Shown: positions 39,290-48,234 of the stretch, in pieces
Layout of the letters: each line of letters begins with the position of its first letter
Position numbering within the stretch: position 1 is the stretch's first letter
From: Paracoccus halophilus
Lineage (GTDB): Bacteria > Pseudomonadota > Alphaproteobacteria > Rhodobacterales > Rhodobacteraceae
Assembly: GCF_000763905.1 (NCBI RefSeq)
Contig: NZ_JRKN01000004.1
Span: 1-64,000, forward strand
Length of the DNA: 64,000 nt
Direction: 5' to 3'
Made by a program: the position numbers and the translations under genes
The notes under the pieces: generated by a model
Databases searched by the model: none
What the model was told of the DNA's origin: nothing
The model's input: only the letters and a program-made list of their open reading frames with translations

Positions 39290-39317
39290 TGATCCGGTCC
39301 CGCCCTTGCTGCGTAAG
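39290..39317 (+). promoter_or_regulatory. Predicted sigmaE (RpoE-ChrR) promoter of the fasciclin gene
   Basis: TGATCC at 39290-39295 and CGTAAG at 39312-39317 are separated by exactly 16 bases. The same arrangement occurs twice in the rpoE-FAD oxidoreductase divergent region. TGATCC with a GTAA-type -10 is the known consensus of the Rhodobacter singlet-oxygen sigma factor. Transcription would start near 39324, giving a leader of about 60 bases before the gene. The rest of the 218-base gap between the carbonic anhydrase and fasciclin genes shows nothing else convincing. Confidence 0.75.
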
Positions 39318-40656: not shown

Positions 40657-42099
40657 TCAGTTCTCCGGTCTCAGGGCGCGAAACCGCGTCAGCGCGGCAA
40701 GCGCGGCTTTGCGGCCCGCGCTCAGCGCCGATGGCGGGCCGGGCTGCCAGCATGGTTTCACCTGCCATGCGCGCGGCACTGTGTCCAGCCAGGCGCGGGC
40801 TTCGGATGTCCCGGCGCTGCCCGTCCCCGCCAGCCAGCGCCGGCGATAGGCCGCATCGGGGTCGTATCTGCGGGCCTGAAGGTCGGGATTGAAGATGCGG
40901 AAATAGGGCGCCGCATCGGGGCCGCAGCCGGCCACCCATTGCCAGTTCATCGCATTCGAGGCCGGGTCCCAGTCGGTCAGGCAATCGGCGAAATGCGCAA
41001 GCCCCGCGCGCCAGTCGGTCAGCAGATGCTTGGTCAGCCAGCTTGCCGCCACCATGCGCACACGGTTATGCATCCGCCCGGTGACCCACATTTCGCGCAG
41101 GCCCGCATCGACCAGCGCCACCCCGGTTTCCGCCCGCCGCCATTGCGTCAGGCCGGGGCCGTCCTTTTGCCAGGGGAAACGCTGCCATTCCGGGCGCCAG
41201 CAGGTGTCCGTCATCTGCGGGAATTCGATCAGCAGGTGCCAGGCGAATTCCCGCCAGATCACCTCGGACAGGAATTTGGCGATCCCCTGCGCCTGACCGG
41301 ATATCAGCTCCGCCTGCGGCGCGGCCATGGCCCAAAGCGTGCGCGGGCCGATCTCGCCCAGGGCCAGATGCTCGGAGAGGCCCGAGGTCACATTCAGGTC
41401 GGGGCGGTCGCGCCCGTCGGCATAGTCCTCTGCACGGTCAAGGAATTCGGCCAGCCGTGCCTGCGCCGCCGCTTCGCCGGCAGGCAGGGCGAAACGTTCC
41501 AGCGCCGCGCGTCCGCGATGCAGGTCGGGCGCCAGATCCAGCCGGGCGGGGTCCGGGTCGTCCGGCAGAGCGGCGAAACCCGTGATCCGCGCGGGCGCGT
41601 CGGGCGCCGGGCGGTCGGCGCCGATGCGGCGCAGCGCGCGGGCAAAGGGCGAATAGACGCGAAAGGCGCCGCCCGATGCATTGCGCAGCGCGGCCGGAGG
41701 CAGCAGCAGATGCCCCTGATGCAGCACCAGATCGCCGCCGATCGGACGCAGGGCCGCGCGCAGCCGCGCCTGCAGCGCGCGCATGCCGGGCGTGGGCCAG
41801 TCCGACTGATGCAGGCGGCGCGCGCCAAGGCGCTGCATCAGCACCGGCAGCAGTTCATCGGCTTCGCCGCGCAGCACGCTGACGCCCCGCCCGCCGCTGC
41901 GCGCCCGCAGCGCCGCGTCAAAGGCTGCGAGCGCGCGCCCCAGACGCCAGCGGCTGGCCGCGCCCTGTTCCAGCGTCAGGCGGTCGATGATGAACACCGG
42001 CAAGAGCGGCCCGTCGGTGATCGCGGCCCGCAGGGCGGCATTGTCGGCAAGACGGAAATCGCGGGTCAGCCAGAATATGCCGGGCGGTGCGGTCGTCAC
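40657..42099 (-). CDS. phrB: Deoxyribodipyrimidine photolyase (cryptochrome/photolyase family)
   Basis: A 480-residue flavoenzyme that uses light to split pyrimidine dimers. The N-terminal antenna domain begins GIFWLTRDFRLADNAAL. The FAD domain shows EFAWHLLIEFPQM, FPWQKDGPGLTQWRRAETG, MHNRVRMVAASWLTKHLL and DWDPASNAMNWQWVAG. I chose GTG 42099 because it overlaps the methyltransferase stop as GTGA and has GAGG upstream; earlier starts add unrelated residues. Photolyase genes belong to sigmaE-ChrR regulons in related bacteria, in line with the promoter at the head of this operon. Confidence 0.95.
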   Translation of the reverse strand: MTTAPPGIFWLTRDFRLADNAALRAAITDGPLLPVFIIDRLTLEQGAASRWRLGRALAAFDAALRARSGGRGVSVLRGEADELLPVLMQRLGARRLHQSDWPTPGMRALQARLRAALRPIGGDLVLHQGHLLLPPAALRNASGGAFRVYSPFARALRRIGADRPAPDAPARITGFAALPDDPDPARLDLAPDLHRGRAALERFALPAGEAAAQARLAEFLDRAEDYADGRDRPDLNVTSGLSEHLALGEIGPRTLWAMAAPQAELISGQAQGIAKFLSEVIWREFAWHLLIEFPQMTDTCWRPEWQRFPWQKDGPGLTQWRRAETGVALVDAGLREMWVTGRMHNRVRMVAASWLTKHLLTDWRAGLAHFADCLTDWDPASNAMNWQWVAGCGPDAAPYFRIFNPDLQARRYDPDAAYRRRWLAGTGSAGTSEARAWLDTVPRAWQVKPCWQPGPPSALSAGRKAALAALTRFRALRPEN

Positions 42100-43262
42100 C
42101 TTGCCTCGCTGGCATGGGCAAGTGCAACCTGCACGACGTCGCATCTGCCGGTGGCAAAGGCGGCGGCGCAGCCCTGAAGGTAATATTGCCAGCCGCGCAG
42201 AAAGGCATCGTCATGGCCAAGCCGCAGGATTCGCCGGCGTTCTTCGTGCATGCGCGCGGACCAGATGCGGCAGGTGCGGGCATAGTCCTGTCCGAAAGCG
42301 TGGCTGGCCCGGACCCGCAATCCCGCCCGTGCGGCCTCGGTCGCGATCATCGCCTCGCAGGGCAGCATGCCGCCCGGAAAGACATGCTGGCGGATGAAGT
42401 CCGAGCGGCGGCGATAGAGCGAAAACCCGGCATCGGGCACGGTGATCGCCTGCAGGACCGCGCTTCCGCCCGCCTTGAGGCGCGATTTCAGCGTCGCGAA
42501 ATAGGTCGGCCAATAGCGTTCGCCGACGGCCTCGATCATCTCGATCGACACGATATTGTCGTAGCGGCCGGTGACCTTGCGATAGTCCTGCAGCCGCACC
42601 TCGGCGCGGCCGTCCAGACGGGCATCGGCATAGCCCATCTGCGAGGGCGAAAGGGTGATGGCGGTGACGCGCTGGCCCCGGTCCGCGGCGGTTTCGGCAA
42701 AGCCGCCCCAGCCGCAGCCGATTTCCAGCAGGCTGTCGCCGGGCGACAAAAGCGACAGGATGCGCCGGTTCTTGCGCGCCTGCGCCTGTTCCAGATCGTC
42801 GCCCGGCCCGAACATCGCCGAGGAATAGGTCATGCCGGGATCGAGCCAGAGCTGGTAGAATTCGTTTCCGACATCGTAATGCGCGCGGATATTGCGCGAG
42901 GCACCCCGCGGGCCGTTGCCGCGCAGGAACGCGTCCACCAGCCGCATCCGCCATGTCTGCAGCCGCCCGGGCGCCGACCAGCCCGAAAGCGCGCCGCTGT
43001 TGCGCATCGCCAGCGCAAGCAGGTCCTCCAGCCTGTCGCTGTGCCAGTCGCCGGCGACCCAGCCCTCGCCCAGCCCGACATCGCCGCGCAGGGCCAGCCG
43101 CGACAACAGGCGCCAGTCGCGGAGATGCATCTCCACCTCGGGGCCGGTATCGCCAAAGCGGTGCTGCCCGCCTTCGGGCGTGGTCAGGATCAGGCGCCCC
43201 CCGGCAATCCCTTCGAGCGCGGCGAGAAAGCGGGTTTTCAGGGCGCGCGTGGCCAGCGTCAT
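42096..43262 (-). CDS. Cyclopropane-fatty-acyl-phospholipid synthase-like methyltransferase
   Basis: A 388-residue SAM-dependent methyltransferase of the CFA synthase family. Motif I is LEIGCGWGGFAETAADRG; ITLSPSQMGYADARL, ISEMIEAVGERYWP-like acceptor elements (SIEMIEAVGERYW) and the N-terminal lipid-binding domain fit the family. It methylates unsaturated acyl chains of membrane lipids, giving cyclopropane or, in related sigmaE-linked systems, methylated or furan fatty acids. Overlaps of four bases with both neighbours put it inside a five-gene operon driven by the sigmaE promoter. Confidence 0.92.
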   Translation of the reverse strand: MTLATRALKTRFLAALEGIAGGRLILTTPEGGQHRFGDTGPEVEMHLRDWRLLSRLALRGDVGLGEGWVAGDWHSDRLEDLLALAMRNSGALSGWSAPGRLQTWRMRLVDAFLRGNGPRGASRNIRAHYDVGNEFYQLWLDPGMTYSSAMFGPGDDLEQAQARKNRRILSLLSPGDSLLEIGCGWGGFAETAADRGQRVTAITLSPSQMGYADARLDGRAEVRLQDYRKVTGRYDNIVSIEMIEAVGERYWPTYFATLKSRLKAGGSAVLQAITVPDAGFSLYRRRSDFIRQHVFPGGMLPCEAMIATEAARAGLRVRASHAFGQDYARTCRIWSARMHEERRRILRLGHDDAFLRGWQYYLQGCAAAFATGRCDVVQVALAHASEAR

Positions 43263-44038
43263 CGGCTGATCTCCTTGTCGGGAGGGGCGGGGCGGCGGCG
43301 ATAGGCCGCGCCTTTCAGTTTCAGGCGCAGCGCGTGCCAGTAGATCTGCGCGATCACCCGCAGCGCGCCCCCCGGCCGGCGCAGCGCGGCGGCAAGGATC
43401 GCGCGGTTGGTCAGCCCCCGCAAGGGGCCGCTCATGGCGGTATCGACCCCGGCCTTGCCGTCGATATGGCGGATGCGAATGGCGATCCGGTCCGCATGCA
43501 GGGCAAAGCTGAACCGATAGCGGCCGCTGACATCCTGAAAGGGCGAGACGTGAAAGACCTTGCGCGCGCTCAGCCGCGTGCCCTGGGTGATTGGCGCCCG
43601 GTCCGGCGCGACCAGCAGATAGCTGTGGCGCTGGCCGAAGGTGTTGTTCACCTCGGCGATGACCGCGAGCAGCGCGTCATCCTCGATCAGCATCCAGAAG
43701 CTGACCGGATTGAACCAGTAGCCCAGAAAACGCGGCTGGGTCAGCAGTGCCAGCACCAGACCGGGGCGGCGGGCGATCCCGGCGCCGCCGATCTGCTCCC
43801 ATGCCCAGGAGGCGCCGGAACCCCGGCCGCGCGGGCCGCCATGGTCGGCATCGTGAAATGCCAGCAGGTTGAAGCGGTTATGCGACATGAGCGCCGGCGG
43901 GCGGAACCCCTCGGGCGCCAGCAGCAGGTAATCCGCATCGGTGCGAAAGGCGTGGCGCAGCTGGCCGCGCCGGGCATGGGTGACCTGCGCGCGCATCGCC
44001 AGCACCTCGCCCGATCCCAGCCGCGCCGCCAGCGTCAC
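43259..44038 (-). CDS. DUF1365 family protein
   Basis: A 259-residue protein of DUF1365, nearly always found with the FAD oxidoreductase and CFA-type methyltransferase that flank it here. Typical segments are HARRGQLRHAFRTDADYLLL, LTQPRFLGYWFNPVSFW and EVNNTFGQRHSYLL. Biochemistry is not settled; a role in modifying membrane fatty acids with its neighbours is inferred from this strict linkage. Both ends overlap neighbouring genes by four bases. Confidence 0.92.
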   Translation of the reverse strand: MTLAARLGSGEVLAMRAQVTHARRGQLRHAFRTDADYLLLAPEGFRPPALMSHNRFNLLAFHDADHGGPRGRGSGASWAWEQIGGAGIARRPGLVLALLTQPRFLGYWFNPVSFWMLIEDDALLAVIAEVNNTFGQRHSYLLVAPDRAPITQGTRLSARKVFHVSPFQDVSGRYRFSFALHADRIAIRIRHIDGKAGVDTAMSGPLRGLTNRAILAAALRRPGGALRVIAQIYWHALRLKLKGAAYRRRPAPPDKEISR

Positions 44039-45318: not shown

Positions 45319-45344
45319 GGATTCCCGTTGCTTGTTGTTTCCTC

Positions 45345-45372
45345 ATTACGCGGCATCCCGGGGTGCGGATCA
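45345..45372 (-). promoter_or_regulatory. Predicted sigmaE promoter of the five-gene photo-stress operon
   Basis: On the minus strand TGATCC (45372-45367) and CGTAAT (45350-45345) are separated by 16 bases. The start of the FAD oxidoreductase gene follows 27 bases later. It stands back to back with the rpoE promoter, with 27 bases between the two -35 elements. Confidence 0.8.
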
Positions 45373-45399
45373 GTCGCGGCGAAAATTTTCCGCGCTTTG

Positions 45400-45427
45400 T
45401 GATCCGATCGGCCGCCTGACGCGTAGC
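45400..45427 (+). promoter_or_regulatory. Predicted autoregulated sigmaE promoter of rpoE-chrR
   Basis: TGATCC (45400-45405) and CGTAGC (45422-45427) are separated by 16 bases, facing rpoE. Autoregulation by the encoded sigma factor is the rule for this group. Transcription would start at about 45434, exactly at an in-frame ATG, so a leaderless longer form cannot be excluded. Confidence 0.75.
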
Positions 45428-45538
45428 CCCGACATGGAAACCGCGATTGTGCCCGTTGCCTGCAGAGACCATAGAGGAGTTGGGCCGCATGCCAATCCGG
45501 CGGCGCAACGCCATGGCCATGGACAGAAGGCGGAATGT

Positions 45539-46099
45539 TTGCAGTCCGGTGATGACAGCCTTTCAGAGATGACGCGCCACCTGATCGCGGTGCGGGACCG
45601 GCGCGACCGGGCGGCCTTTTGCTGTCTGTTCGACCATTTCGCGCCCCGGCTCAAGGCGATGCTGCTGCGCCGGGGTCTGCGCGACGGAAGCGCCGAGGAT
45701 GTCGTGCAGGACGTGATGCTGACGGTCTGGCACAAGGCGGCGCAGTTCGATCCGCATCGCGCCGAAGCTTCCGGCTGGATCTATGCCATCGCCCGCAACC
45801 GCCGCATCGACCTGGAGCGCCGCCGCCCCCTGTCGCAGCCCGAGGAGCTGCCGGAACCCGAAACCGCTGAGCCCGATGCCGCGCAGATCCTCGCGCTGCA
45901 GCAGGAGGCCCGCCACCTTGCCGAGGCGCTTGCCCGCCTGGCGCCCGAACAGGCCGAGGCACTGCGCGCCGCCTATTTCAGCGATCTGCCGCACCGCCGG
46001 ATCGCCGAGATGAGCGGGCTGCCGCTTGGCACCATCAAGTCCCGCATCCGCCTTGGCCTCGAACGCCTGCGCCACGAGCTGAAGAACATCGCCCCATGA
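45539..46099 (+). CDS. rpoE: ECF sigma factor of the RpoE-ChrR singlet-oxygen response
   Basis: An ECF sigma factor. Region 2 spans AAFCCLFDHFAPRLKAMLLRRG to EDVVQDVMLTVWHKAAQF and NRRIDLERRR; region 4 is LPHRRIAEMSGLPLGTIKSRIRLGLERLRHEL. I take TTG 45539 because AAGGCGG precedes it and the N-terminus then has a normal length (186 residues). ATG 45569 and a possible leaderless ATG 45434 are alternatives. The four-base overlap with chrR and the match to the ChrR-controlled group define it as the sigmaE that responds to singlet oxygen. Confidence 0.9.
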   Translation: MQSGDDSLSEMTRHLIAVRDRRDRAAFCCLFDHFAPRLKAMLLRRGLRDGSAEDVVQDVMLTVWHKAAQFDPHRAEASGWIYAIARNRRIDLERRRPLSQPEELPEPETAEPDAAQILALQQEARHLAEALARLAPEQAEALRAAYFSDLPHRRIAEMSGLPLGTIKSRIRLGLERLRHELKNIAP

Positions 46100-46728
46100 C
46101 CGAGATCCGCCACCATATCCCCGAGGACATTCTGGACGCCTATCGCGCCGGCAGCCTGTCGCATGCCTTTGCCGTGGTCGTGGCCGCGCATCTGTCGCTC
46201 TGCGACCGCTGCCGCGCCCGTCACGAGGCGGCGGACATGATCGGCGGCGCGCTTCTGGATCAGGCCGAGGCGGTGCCCCTGGCTACGGGCGCCCGGCAGC
46301 GGATGATGGCGCTGCTGGACGGGCCGCCGCCGCGCCCGCCGATGCGCGGCACGGGCATGTTTCCGGCGCCGGTGATGGCAGAGCTTGGCGGCCTCCCGCC
46401 GCGCTGGAAAATGCTGGGCGGCGGCATCCGCCAGCAGATCCTGTCGGCCGACCGGGACGGATCGCTGCGGCTTCTTTACATTCCGGGCGGCAAGGCGGTG
46501 CCGGAGCACGGCCATCGCGGGCTGGAGCTGACGCTGGTCCTGCAGGGCAGCTTTCACGACAGCGAAGGCAGCTTTGGCCGCGGCGATGTCGAGGCCGCCC
46601 ATGACGAGATCGACCATCAGCCCATAGCCGACCCGGGCGCGCCCTGCATCTGCCTCGCGGCTACGGATGCGCCGCTGCGGTTCCACGCGATGCTGCCGCG
46701 GCTGTTGCAGCCCCTTTTCCGGATCTGA
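46096..46728 (+). CDS. chrR: ChrR zinc-dependent anti-sigmaE factor
   Basis: A 210-residue anti-sigma factor. The N-terminal zinc-binding domain has His6/His7 and the HxxxCxxC motif His32-Cys36-Cys39 (HLSLCDRC), which holds the sigma factor. The C-terminal cupin-like domain has candidate metal ligands His138, His140, Glu144 and His174, spaced as in Rhodobacter sphaeroides ChrR, where this domain is needed for the singlet-oxygen signal. Translationally coupled to rpoE (ATGA). Confidence 0.95.
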   Translation: MTEIRHHIPEDILDAYRAGSLSHAFAVVVAAHLSLCDRCRARHEAADMIGGALLDQAEAVPLATGARQRMMALLDGPPPRPPMRGTGMFPAPVMAELGGLPPRWKMLGGGIRQQILSADRDGSLRLLYIPGGKAVPEHGHRGLELTLVLQGSFHDSEGSFGRGDVEAAHDEIDHQPIADPGAPCICLAATDAPLRFHAMLPRLLQPLFRI

Positions 46729-47875: not shown

Positions 47876-48234
47876 CTCGTATCCTTGTCCTCATGGTGTC
47901 GATCGCATGTGTCACGCTCGATGGATCTGTGCCCACCCGGACGGCGTGTCCGCCGGAGGCCGGTTCAGGTATCGCGCGGCGGAGGCCCGGCCCATCGCAG
48001 CATTCTTTCGTGCTATACGCCCGCGCCGTCACCCCGGATCATTCGACAGCCGAAAAATGGATGAGATTCCGATTTTGCCCGACGCTCGGCGGGGGACCTT
48101 TCCCGGACCAGCGCTCGCGCCGGTTCGGCGGTGGAATGGATGAACCGGTCCCGCCCGTCGGGGGGCCAACCCCTTCGACGCTGAGCCGGCGTCTTTCCGG
48201 AACAGGCCCAGCCGCGCGGCCGCGCCGGGCCAAT
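47876..48234. other. Gene-free stretch between DUF2177 and the nucleotidase
   Basis: About 360 bases with no convincing coding frame. A plus-strand frame that crosses it runs on into the antisense of the nucleotidase gene and has no recognisable protein content. The promoter of the DUF2177 gene must lie at the left edge; a weak AGATCC is present but lacks a matching -10 element. At the right edge is the terminator of the nucleotidase gene. I see nothing else. Confidence 0.5.

What the first reader, a model, noticed from the sequence alone, without database searches (positions are those of the whole stretch)
45345..45427. Back-to-back sigmaE promoters with identical spacing
The two -35 elements stand 27 bases apart and both have 16-base spacers to CGTA. 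A single sigma factor can thus fire both arms of the response at once and amplify itself. The rpoE start site would coincide with an in-frame ATG, raising a possible leaderless mRNA.
Basis: partly seen in the sequence, partly recalled or inferred. Interest (0 to 1): 0.6.

Follow-up and report, generated by a model that had tools for sequence, protein, structure and literature searches.

The report
Leaderless start of stress sigma factor
The two back-to-back stress promoters are real and common in this bacterial family, and the one that drives the regulator's own gene appears to start its RNA right on a start codon, which predicts a longer, so far overlooked form of the stress regulator.

Summary
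Confirmed: TGATCC-N16-CGTA promoters stand back to back at 45347-45372 (-) and 45400-45425 (+), -35 boxes 27 bp apart. The genes mark an RpoE-ChrR (ECF11, singlet-oxygen) locus, divergent from furan-fatty-acid-type genes and a photolyase. The exact arrangement occurs in 76 of 394 family genomes. The 27-bp distance is not conserved (2-87 bp) and 16-bp spacers are the consensus.

The leaderless suggestion is the strong part. Of 140 distinct family rpoE loci with a promoter, 135 have an ATG 8 or 9 nt after CGTA in frame with RpoE; in 40 loci fetched afterwards as a check, 34 do. The frame is open in 172 of 173 such loci while other frames seldom are, and the base before the ATG is C/T in 168 of 169. 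On the opposite arm, 2 of 73 have an ATG there. Most (110 of 173) also keep an internal Shine-Dalgarno start. R. sphaeroides uses a GUG with the RNA start at -96, a multiple of three (PMC8307010). I infer two RpoE isoforms, resembling Streptomyces SigR'. No 5' end or protein was measured.

The parts
45347..45372 (-). sigmaE (ECF11) promoter of the ufaD arm: TGATCC-N16-CGTA
   Evidence: same arrangement in related loci
45338..45338 (-). predicted +1 of the ufaD arm (8 nt after CGTA), giving a 20-nt leader before ATG 45318
   Evidence: inferred; purine at this offset in 63 of 73 minus arms, but offsets 9 and 10 are also purine-rich
45381..45390 (.). A/T tract GAAAATTTTC in the middle of the 27-bp gap; candidate shared UP element
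   Evidence: A/T 0.81-0.95 at 11-17 nt upstream of TGATCC in 21 loci with gap 24-30, some of them closely related
45400..45425 (+). sigmaE (ECF11) promoter of rpoE (autoregulation): TGATCC-N16-CGTA
45434..45436 (+). ATG whose A is the predicted +1: leaderless start codon of the long RpoE
   Evidence: in-frame ATG at +8/+9 in 135 of 140 loci and 34 of 40 later loci; pyrimidine before it in 134 of 135 and 34 of 34
45434..46099 (+). rpoE, long form (221 aa): N-terminal extension plus sigma regions 2 and 4
   Evidence: (PF04542, PF08281); residues 1-40 modelled with low confidence as coil
45525..45533 (+). purine-rich AGAAGGCGG, candidate Shine-Dalgarno of the internal start
45539..46099 (+). rpoE, short form (186 aa) from internal TTG
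   Evidence: SD plus start codon in this codon window in 89 of 139 loci (controls 15, 4, 11) and 21 of 34 later loci (controls 4, 3, 0)
46096..46728 (+). chrR, anti-sigma factor; its start overlaps the rpoE stop (ATGA)
   Evidence: TIGR02451 8.2e-57 above its cut-off; PF12973, PF13490
46732..47466 (+). short-chain dehydrogenase, third gene of the rpoE arm
   Evidence: PF00106
44035..45318 (-). ufaD-like FAD oxidoreductase, first gene of the opposite arm
   Evidence: PF01593; UfaD/RSP1091 in PMC7380195; equated by domain and order
43259..44038 (-). ufaO-like DUF1365 protein
   Evidence: PF07103 2.9e-60
42096..43262 (-). ufaM/cfa-like SAM methyltransferase
   Evidence: PF02353 6.1e-74
40657..42144 (-). 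DNA photolyase, overlapping the methyltransferase gene
   Evidence: PF03441, PF00875
39290..39315 (+). further exact sigmaE promoter, 70 nt before the start of a fasciclin-domain gene (39386)
48016..48041 (-). further exact sigmaE promoter upstream of the DUF2177 gene (47875-47471)

Best explanation
This is the autoregulatory, divergent promoter of an ECF11 RpoE-ChrR stress locus. When ChrR releases RpoE, the sigma factor fires two back-to-back promoters: leftward, a normal leadered set of genes for furan fatty acids and photolyase; rightward, its own rpoE-chrR operon. The rightward RNA begins on the A of ATG 45434 (inferred), so RpoE is translated leaderless as a long form with a probably disordered extension of 35 residues. 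The same RNA carries an internal Shine-Dalgarno start (TTG 45539; mostly GTG in relatives) that gives a short form like the one used in R. sphaeroides. Shown here: conservation of promoter, ATG position, frame, preceding base and internal start. Inferred: the 5' end, translation from both starts, and the role of the long form, most likely a stress-only, self-limiting isoform as in Streptomyces SigR'.
For: In-frame ATG at +8/+9 in 135 of 140 family loci with a promoter (L066 counted as a miss) and 34 of 40 loci fetched later as a check. ATG in any frame: 128 at offset 8 and 9 at offset 9 of 139 loci, against a mean of 2.8 at other offsets, the largest being 27 at offset 42. Frame to RpoE open in 138 of 139 and 34 of 34; other forward frames open in 4 and 31 of 139, and 0 and 6 of 34. 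Base before the ATG C/T in 134 of 135 and 34 of 34, against 90 of 234 for other ATGs. The ufaD arm has ATG at 8/9 in 2 of 73, so the ATG is not a demand of the promoter. Internal SD plus start: 89 of 139 (controls 15, 4, 11; other frames 8, 4) and 21 of 34 (controls 4, 3, 0; other frames 2, 1). L101, L104 and L190 have no usable long frame but keep a GTG. R. sphaeroides: GUG start, TSS at -96 = 32 codons (passages of PMC8307010). Outside the family 19 of 44 loci with a promoter show such an ATG.
Against: No 5' end, peptide or reporter was measured. The published R. sphaeroides work counts from the GUG, and I could not read that DNA (no near-identical RpoE in the sampled genomes); that -96 is in frame assumes usual numbering. 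The rule is not universal: in the later check 6 of 40 miss it (L274 and L284 ATG at 10, L276 at 11, all in frame; L283 has ATA; L275 no ATG there; L298 out of frame). Loci were taken from the best-scoring end of the 316 matching genomes. The extension's residues change almost freely (differences at codon positions 1/2/3: 142/181/214; RpoE core 216/155/857). No SD-led start was found in 50 of 139 and 13 of 34 loci. Outside the family 25 of 44 lack the ATG. On the ufaD arm offsets 9 and 10 are purine-rich too, and the base before offset 8 is a pyrimidine in only 47 of 73, so that arm fixes +1 only loosely.
Confidence: 0.7

Rival explanations
1. Only the internal SD-led GTG/TTG is used; the stretch before it is a plain 5' UTR of about 100 nt, as in the working annotation of R. 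sphaeroides.
For: GUG start, TSS at -96 and a lacZ fusion numbered from that GUG in R. sphaeroides (PMC8307010 passages); SD plus start in 89 of 139 and 21 of 34 loci; L101, L104, L190 and L298 do without the long frame.
Against: Does not explain an ATG at the predicted +1 in 135 of 140 and 34 of 40 loci, nor an open in-frame extension in 172 of 173 when other frames are open in 4 and 37 of 173.
Confidence: 0.1
2. Only the long leaderless form is made; the internal SD-like motif is a by-product of coding for Arg/Lys/Gly-rich residues.
For: 50 of 139 and 13 of 34 loci show no SD-led start in the window searched; that window was chosen after seeing the histogram.
Against: SD plus start is enriched only in that codon window and frame, also in the later loci (21 of 34 against 0-4); natural breaks of the long frame keep GTG; R. 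sphaeroides work uses GUG.
Confidence: 0.1
3. The leaderless frame is translated for its effect on the mRNA (shielding from RNases, opening the internal start), and the long product itself is irrelevant.
For: Residues evolve almost freely while the frame is kept; rpoE mRNA is short-lived, 0.55 min, and RNase E sites were mapped near the start (PMC8307010 passages).
Against: In-frame reading runs through the internal start and necessarily makes the long protein; a stop in the extension would shield as well, yet is seen in 1 of 173.
Confidence: 0.15
4. The 27-bp distance is a device for simultaneous or cooperative firing of both arms.
For: An A/T tract sits midway (0.81-0.95 A/T at 11-17 nt upstream of TGATCC in 21 loci with gap 24-30), so one UP element could serve both polymerases.
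Against: The gap ranges from 2 to 87 bp in 85 loci, with peaks near 4 and 27; 58 loci with no minus promoter found nearby show an A/T peak too.
Confidence: 0.1

Closest known systems
Rhodobacter (Cereibacter) sphaeroides rpoE-chrR with the RSP1091-1087 operon (ECF11)
   Same: Sigma and anti-sigma pair, sigmaE promoter type, furan-fatty-acid genes as targets (PMC6852236 and PMC7380195 passages)
   Different: Its translation start is given as GUG with the RNA start at -96 (PMC8307010); no long or leaderless form is described in the passages I saw
Streptomyces coelicolor SigR' from sigRp2
   Same: ECF sigma factor whose autoregulatory promoter yields an N-terminally extended form (55 or 58 residues) from an upstream ATG; the short form has a weak non-ATG start (PMC4921905, PMC5472188 passages)
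   Different: Different anti-sigma factor (RsrA) and lineage; not described as leaderless in the passages seen; a separate promoter p1 serves the short form; Clp-dependent instability is reported there, untested here
Mycobacterium tuberculosis sigE promoter P2
   Same: ECF sigma gene with a SigE-dependent promoter giving a leaderless mRNA (PMC10027907 passages)
   Different: Its shorter isoforms arise from an internal promoter P3, not from two starts on one autoregulated RNA; different sigma group
Shewanella oneidensis rpoE2-chrR and Pseudomonas syringae PSPTO_1043
   Same: Same TGATCC-N16-CGTA promoter; mapped rpoE2 start is an A downstream of it (PMC4336711, PMC5507510 passages)
   Different: Gammaproteobacteria; leaderless start not mentioned in the passages seen

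Membership tests
ECF11 RpoE-ChrR system | ECF sigma factor with regions 2 and 4, close to R. sphaeroides sigmaE | tested here: met
   PF04542, PF08281; 2q1z_A 4.1e-47
ECF11 RpoE-ChrR system | Adjacent ChrR anti-sigma factor with zinc-finger and cupin domains | tested here: met
   TIGR02451 above cut-off; PF12973, PF13490
ECF11 RpoE-ChrR system | TGATCC-N16-CGTA promoter before the sigma gene | tested here: met
ECF11 RpoE-ChrR system | Response to singlet oxygen | not testable with these tools
   needs expression data
Leaderless mRNA | AUG at the very 5' end of the primary transcript | tested here: inconclusive
   Only predicted: ATG 8 nt after CGTA, pyrimidine before it; no 5' end measured
SigR'-like sigma isoform pair | Extended form in frame, started from the autoregulated promoter | tested here: met
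   open in 138 of 139 and 34 of 34, by sequence only
SigR'-like sigma isoform pair | Separate start for the short form | tested here: met
   SD plus start in 89 of 139 and 21 of 34; TTG 45539 in the window; by sequence only
SigR'-like sigma isoform pair | Extension makes the protein unstable (Clp substrate) | not testable with these tools
   Only low model confidence, pLDDT 46-57 over residues 1-40

The most novel reading that the evidence does not exclude
In most Rhodobacteraceae (and part of other alphaproteobacterial families) the singlet-oxygen sigma factor is made as two proteins from one autoregulated RNA: a leaderless, disordered-tailed, stress-only form and an SD-led form. This would be an independent counterpart of Streptomyces SigR/SigR' that couples amplification to self-limitation and to leaderless initiation, overlooked because the leader was taken for a 5' UTR.
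Probability: 0.45. Interest if true: 0.75.

Novelty: new variant of a known kind. Interest (0 to 1): 0.62.

Why it matters
RpoE-ChrR of R. sphaeroides is a leading model for bacterial singlet-oxygen sensing. If the RNA is leaderless and codes a longer sigma factor, start annotations, reporter fusions and protein constructs made from the GUG describe only one isoform, and feedback models lack a component. The comparison gives a direct test with existing data: the mapped R. sphaeroides start at -96 should be the A of an in-frame ATG.

Tried and rejected
Distance of 27 bp as a conserved device: rejected, gap 2-87 bp. A regulon beyond the cluster: of the two other exact N16 sites of the genome, C56:8294 lies inside a long ORF and C1:224146 inside a short one with no clear gene behind it; treated as chance, and inexact sites were not followed. 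Finding the R. sphaeroides genome: no near-identical RpoE in the sampled sets (the sample looks like a part of that). RpoE on plasmids: no match at 1e-30. A motif K-x-D-A seen by eye in the extension: only 10 of 89 R. sphaeroides-type loci, dropped. A second ATG peak, 27 loci at offset 42, out of frame: mostly context GGATGC, that is GAT-GC codons for Asp-Ala at residues 12-13, so no start. Literature: the listings showed no title or abstract opening on a leaderless or extended RpoE of this group; subscription papers on the R. sphaeroides rpoE promoter were not available.

Dropped before counting: L062, L071, L077, L078, L083, L086 and L093 had no usable RpoE hit; 19 of 184 RpoE hits under 110 bits; 7 near-identical loci; 7 loci without a recognised promoter (L007, L008, L012, L047, L063, L137, L189). 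In some searches I had put L066 (Oceanicella) outside the family; NCBI places it in Rhodobacterales, Paracoccaceae, so I count it as a family miss (135 of 140), while the counts leave it out. L032 and L037 carry Sphingomonad labels and were counted in the family by gene similarity. L039 counts as a miss although its ATG stands at +8; the rpoE of that metagenome contig aligns only in part and seems frameshifted. The 25 pairs of the codon-position test are not independent, and the internal-start window was chosen.

Full report
What is there. Leftward lie an amine-oxidase-like FAD protein, a DUF1365 protein, a cyclopropane-synthase-like methyltransferase and a photolyase; rightward rpoE, chrR and a short-chain dehydrogenase. 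UfaD, UfaO and UfaM of R. sphaeroides make furan fatty acids, and RSP1091 and RSP1090 are UfaD and UfaO (passages of PMC7380195); furan-fatty-acid genes belong to the core sigmaE-ChrR regulon (passages of PMC6852236). I equate the window genes with these by domain and order. Two more exact promoters stand at 39290 (+) and 48016 (-); four of the six exact N16 sites of the 4.0-Mb genome lie in this 9-kb cluster.

How general. The exact back-to-back pattern with a gap of 2-32 bp occurs in 76 of 394 genomes of the family. The reversed-pattern control is zero in the rows printed, but it contains CTAG and is weak; by uniform base use about 0.04 matches would be expected in all 394 (my arithmetic), and 30 of 30 fetched pairs lie beside a ufaD-like gene, 24 of 30 beside rpoE. 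In 151 distinct rpoE loci with a promoter, 85 have a minus-strand partner within 120 bp; the gap runs from 2 to 87 bp with peaks near 4 and 27. The 27 bp are therefore not a constraint. In 21 loci with gap 24-30, some closely related, an A/T tract lies midway; the window has GAAAATTTTC there. A shared UP element is possible but untested.

Leaderless start. RpoE loci came from four searches, with 60 more places taken by hand; these are the best-scoring ones, not a random draw from the 316 matching genomes. After the drops listed under Tried and rejected, 158 distinct loci remained, 151 with a recognised promoter: 140 in the family, 11 outside. An ATG in frame with RpoE stands 8 or 9 nt after CGTA in 135 of the 140: 3 of 3, 27 of 29, 23 of 23, 28 of 30 and 54 of 55 by source group (L066 added). 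As a check on a rule fixed beforehand I fetched 40 further places: 40 of 40 have the promoter, 34 of 40 the ATG. Together 169 of 180.

Controls. ATG in any frame is found at offset 8 in 128 and at 9 in 9 of 139 loci, against a mean of 2.8 at other offsets. Among loci with such an ATG the frame to RpoE is open in 138 of 139 and 34 of 34; the other forward frames are open in 4 and 31 of 139, and 0 and 6 of 34 (the 139 include 4 loci outside the family). The base before the ATG is a pyrimidine in 134 of 135 and 34 of 34, against 90 of 234 for other ATGs: the usual pyrimidine-purine initiator (recalled). The opposite arm is an internal control: ATG at 8/9 in only 2 of 73, an ATG 20-49 nt downstream in 69 of 73, and a purine at offset 8 in 63 of 73. 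Its offsets 9 and 10 are also purine-rich (53 and 56 of 73) and a pyrimidine precedes offset 8 in only 47 of 73, so it supports +1 at offset 8 only loosely.

Exceptions. First set: L101 ATG at 10 out of frame, L116 at 11 in frame, L190 ATG followed at once by a stop, L039 ATG at 8 in a metagenome contig whose rpoE seems frameshifted, L066 ATG at 27. L104 has the ATG but a stop in the extension. L101, L104 and L190 all keep a GTG in front of the RpoE core. Later set: L274 and L284 ATG at 10 and L276 at 11, in frame; L283 ATA at 8; L275 none; L298 ATG at 8 out of frame. Outside the family, 44 of 74 loci examined have a recognised promoter and 19 of the 44 show the ATG; some of these also count among the 11 above, and a few score low as RpoE.

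Second start. An ATG, GTG or TTG preceded by a Shine-Dalgarno-like motif lies 14-23 codons before the conserved RD residues in 89 of 139 loci; control codon windows give 15, 4 and 11, and other frames 8 and 4. In the later loci: 21 of 34; controls 4, 3, 0; other frames 2, 1. In the 89 it is GTG in 66, TTG in 16 and ATG in 7, and stands 75-120 nt after the 5' ATG, most often 105. In the window it is TTG 45539 behind AGAAGGCGG. In R. sphaeroides the translational start is given as GUG and the transcription start as -96 (passages of PMC8307010). Ninety-six is 32 codons and falls in the range seen here, but I could not read that DNA.

The extension. In the window it is 35 residues before the internal start. 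Residues 1-40 are modelled, mostly as coil, with pLDDT 46-57 by block (the model lacks the last residue). Across loci it is rich in Ala, Pro and Arg, with Leu, Phe, Met or Ile as second residue in 104 of 139. Among 25 close pairs, differences fall 142/181/214 on codon positions 1/2/3, against 216/155/857 in the RpoE core. The residues are hardly constrained apart from weak preferences (Asp-Ala at 12-13, Tyr at 20 in the R. sphaeroides type), but the frame is kept. That suits a tail or degron better than a folded domain.

Mechanism. Most likely ChrR loss frees RpoE, which fires both arms; the rpoE RNA starts on its own AUG and yields a long form, while ribosomes entering at the internal SD yield the short form. 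The nearest parallels are Streptomyces SigR' (extended, unstable form from the autoregulated promoter; passages of PMC4921905 and PMC5472188) and M. tuberculosis sigE P2 (leaderless, SigE-dependent; passages of PMC10027907). Shown: positions, frames, conservation. Inferred: the RNA 5' end, use of both starts, any difference in stability. Leaderless mRNAs with AUG are known in alphaproteobacteria (171 in S. meliloti, PMC3616915 abstract and passages), so such translation is plausible here. The literature listings showed no leaderless or extended RpoE of this group; subscription papers were not searched.

Noticed in passing
39290-39315 (+) and 48016-48041 (-): Two further exact sigmaE promoters in front of a fasciclin-domain gene and a DUF2177 gene; with the pair they make a four-promoter cluster holding 4 of the 6 exact N16 sites of this genome.
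   Followed up: partly
L071, L077, L078, L083, L086, L093: Back-to-back sigmaE promoters beside a ufaD-like gene, with no rpoE found in the fetched stretch (L083 is cut short); another gene may share the divergent promoter there.
   Followed up: no
G000-G036 (same genus): Close RpoE homologues occur in only 3 of 37 genomes of the genus (G000, G004, G032), which suggests gain by transfer or repeated loss.
   Followed up: no
L037, L044, L045, L046, L048: Identical minus promoter TGATCCAAGGCCAGGTTCCACGCGTA in four Paracoccus records and in a contig labelled Sphingomonadaceae: recent shared ancestry, transfer or a mislabelled bin; their plus promoter reads TGATCT.
   Followed up: no
codon 2 of the long RpoE, 139 loci: Second residue is Leu, Phe, Met or Ile in 104 of 139: a possible N-terminal degron, or an effect of initial transcription or leaderless initiation.
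   Followed up: no
45381-45390 and the same place in related loci: A/T tract centred about 14 nt upstream of the -35 box, also in 58 loci where no divergent partner was found; looks like an UP element of ECF11 promoters.
   Followed up: partly
L101, L104, L190, L298: rpoE loci in which the long frame is absent or broken, while a GTG in front of the core is kept in the first three: natural short-form-only cases for comparison.
   Followed up: partly
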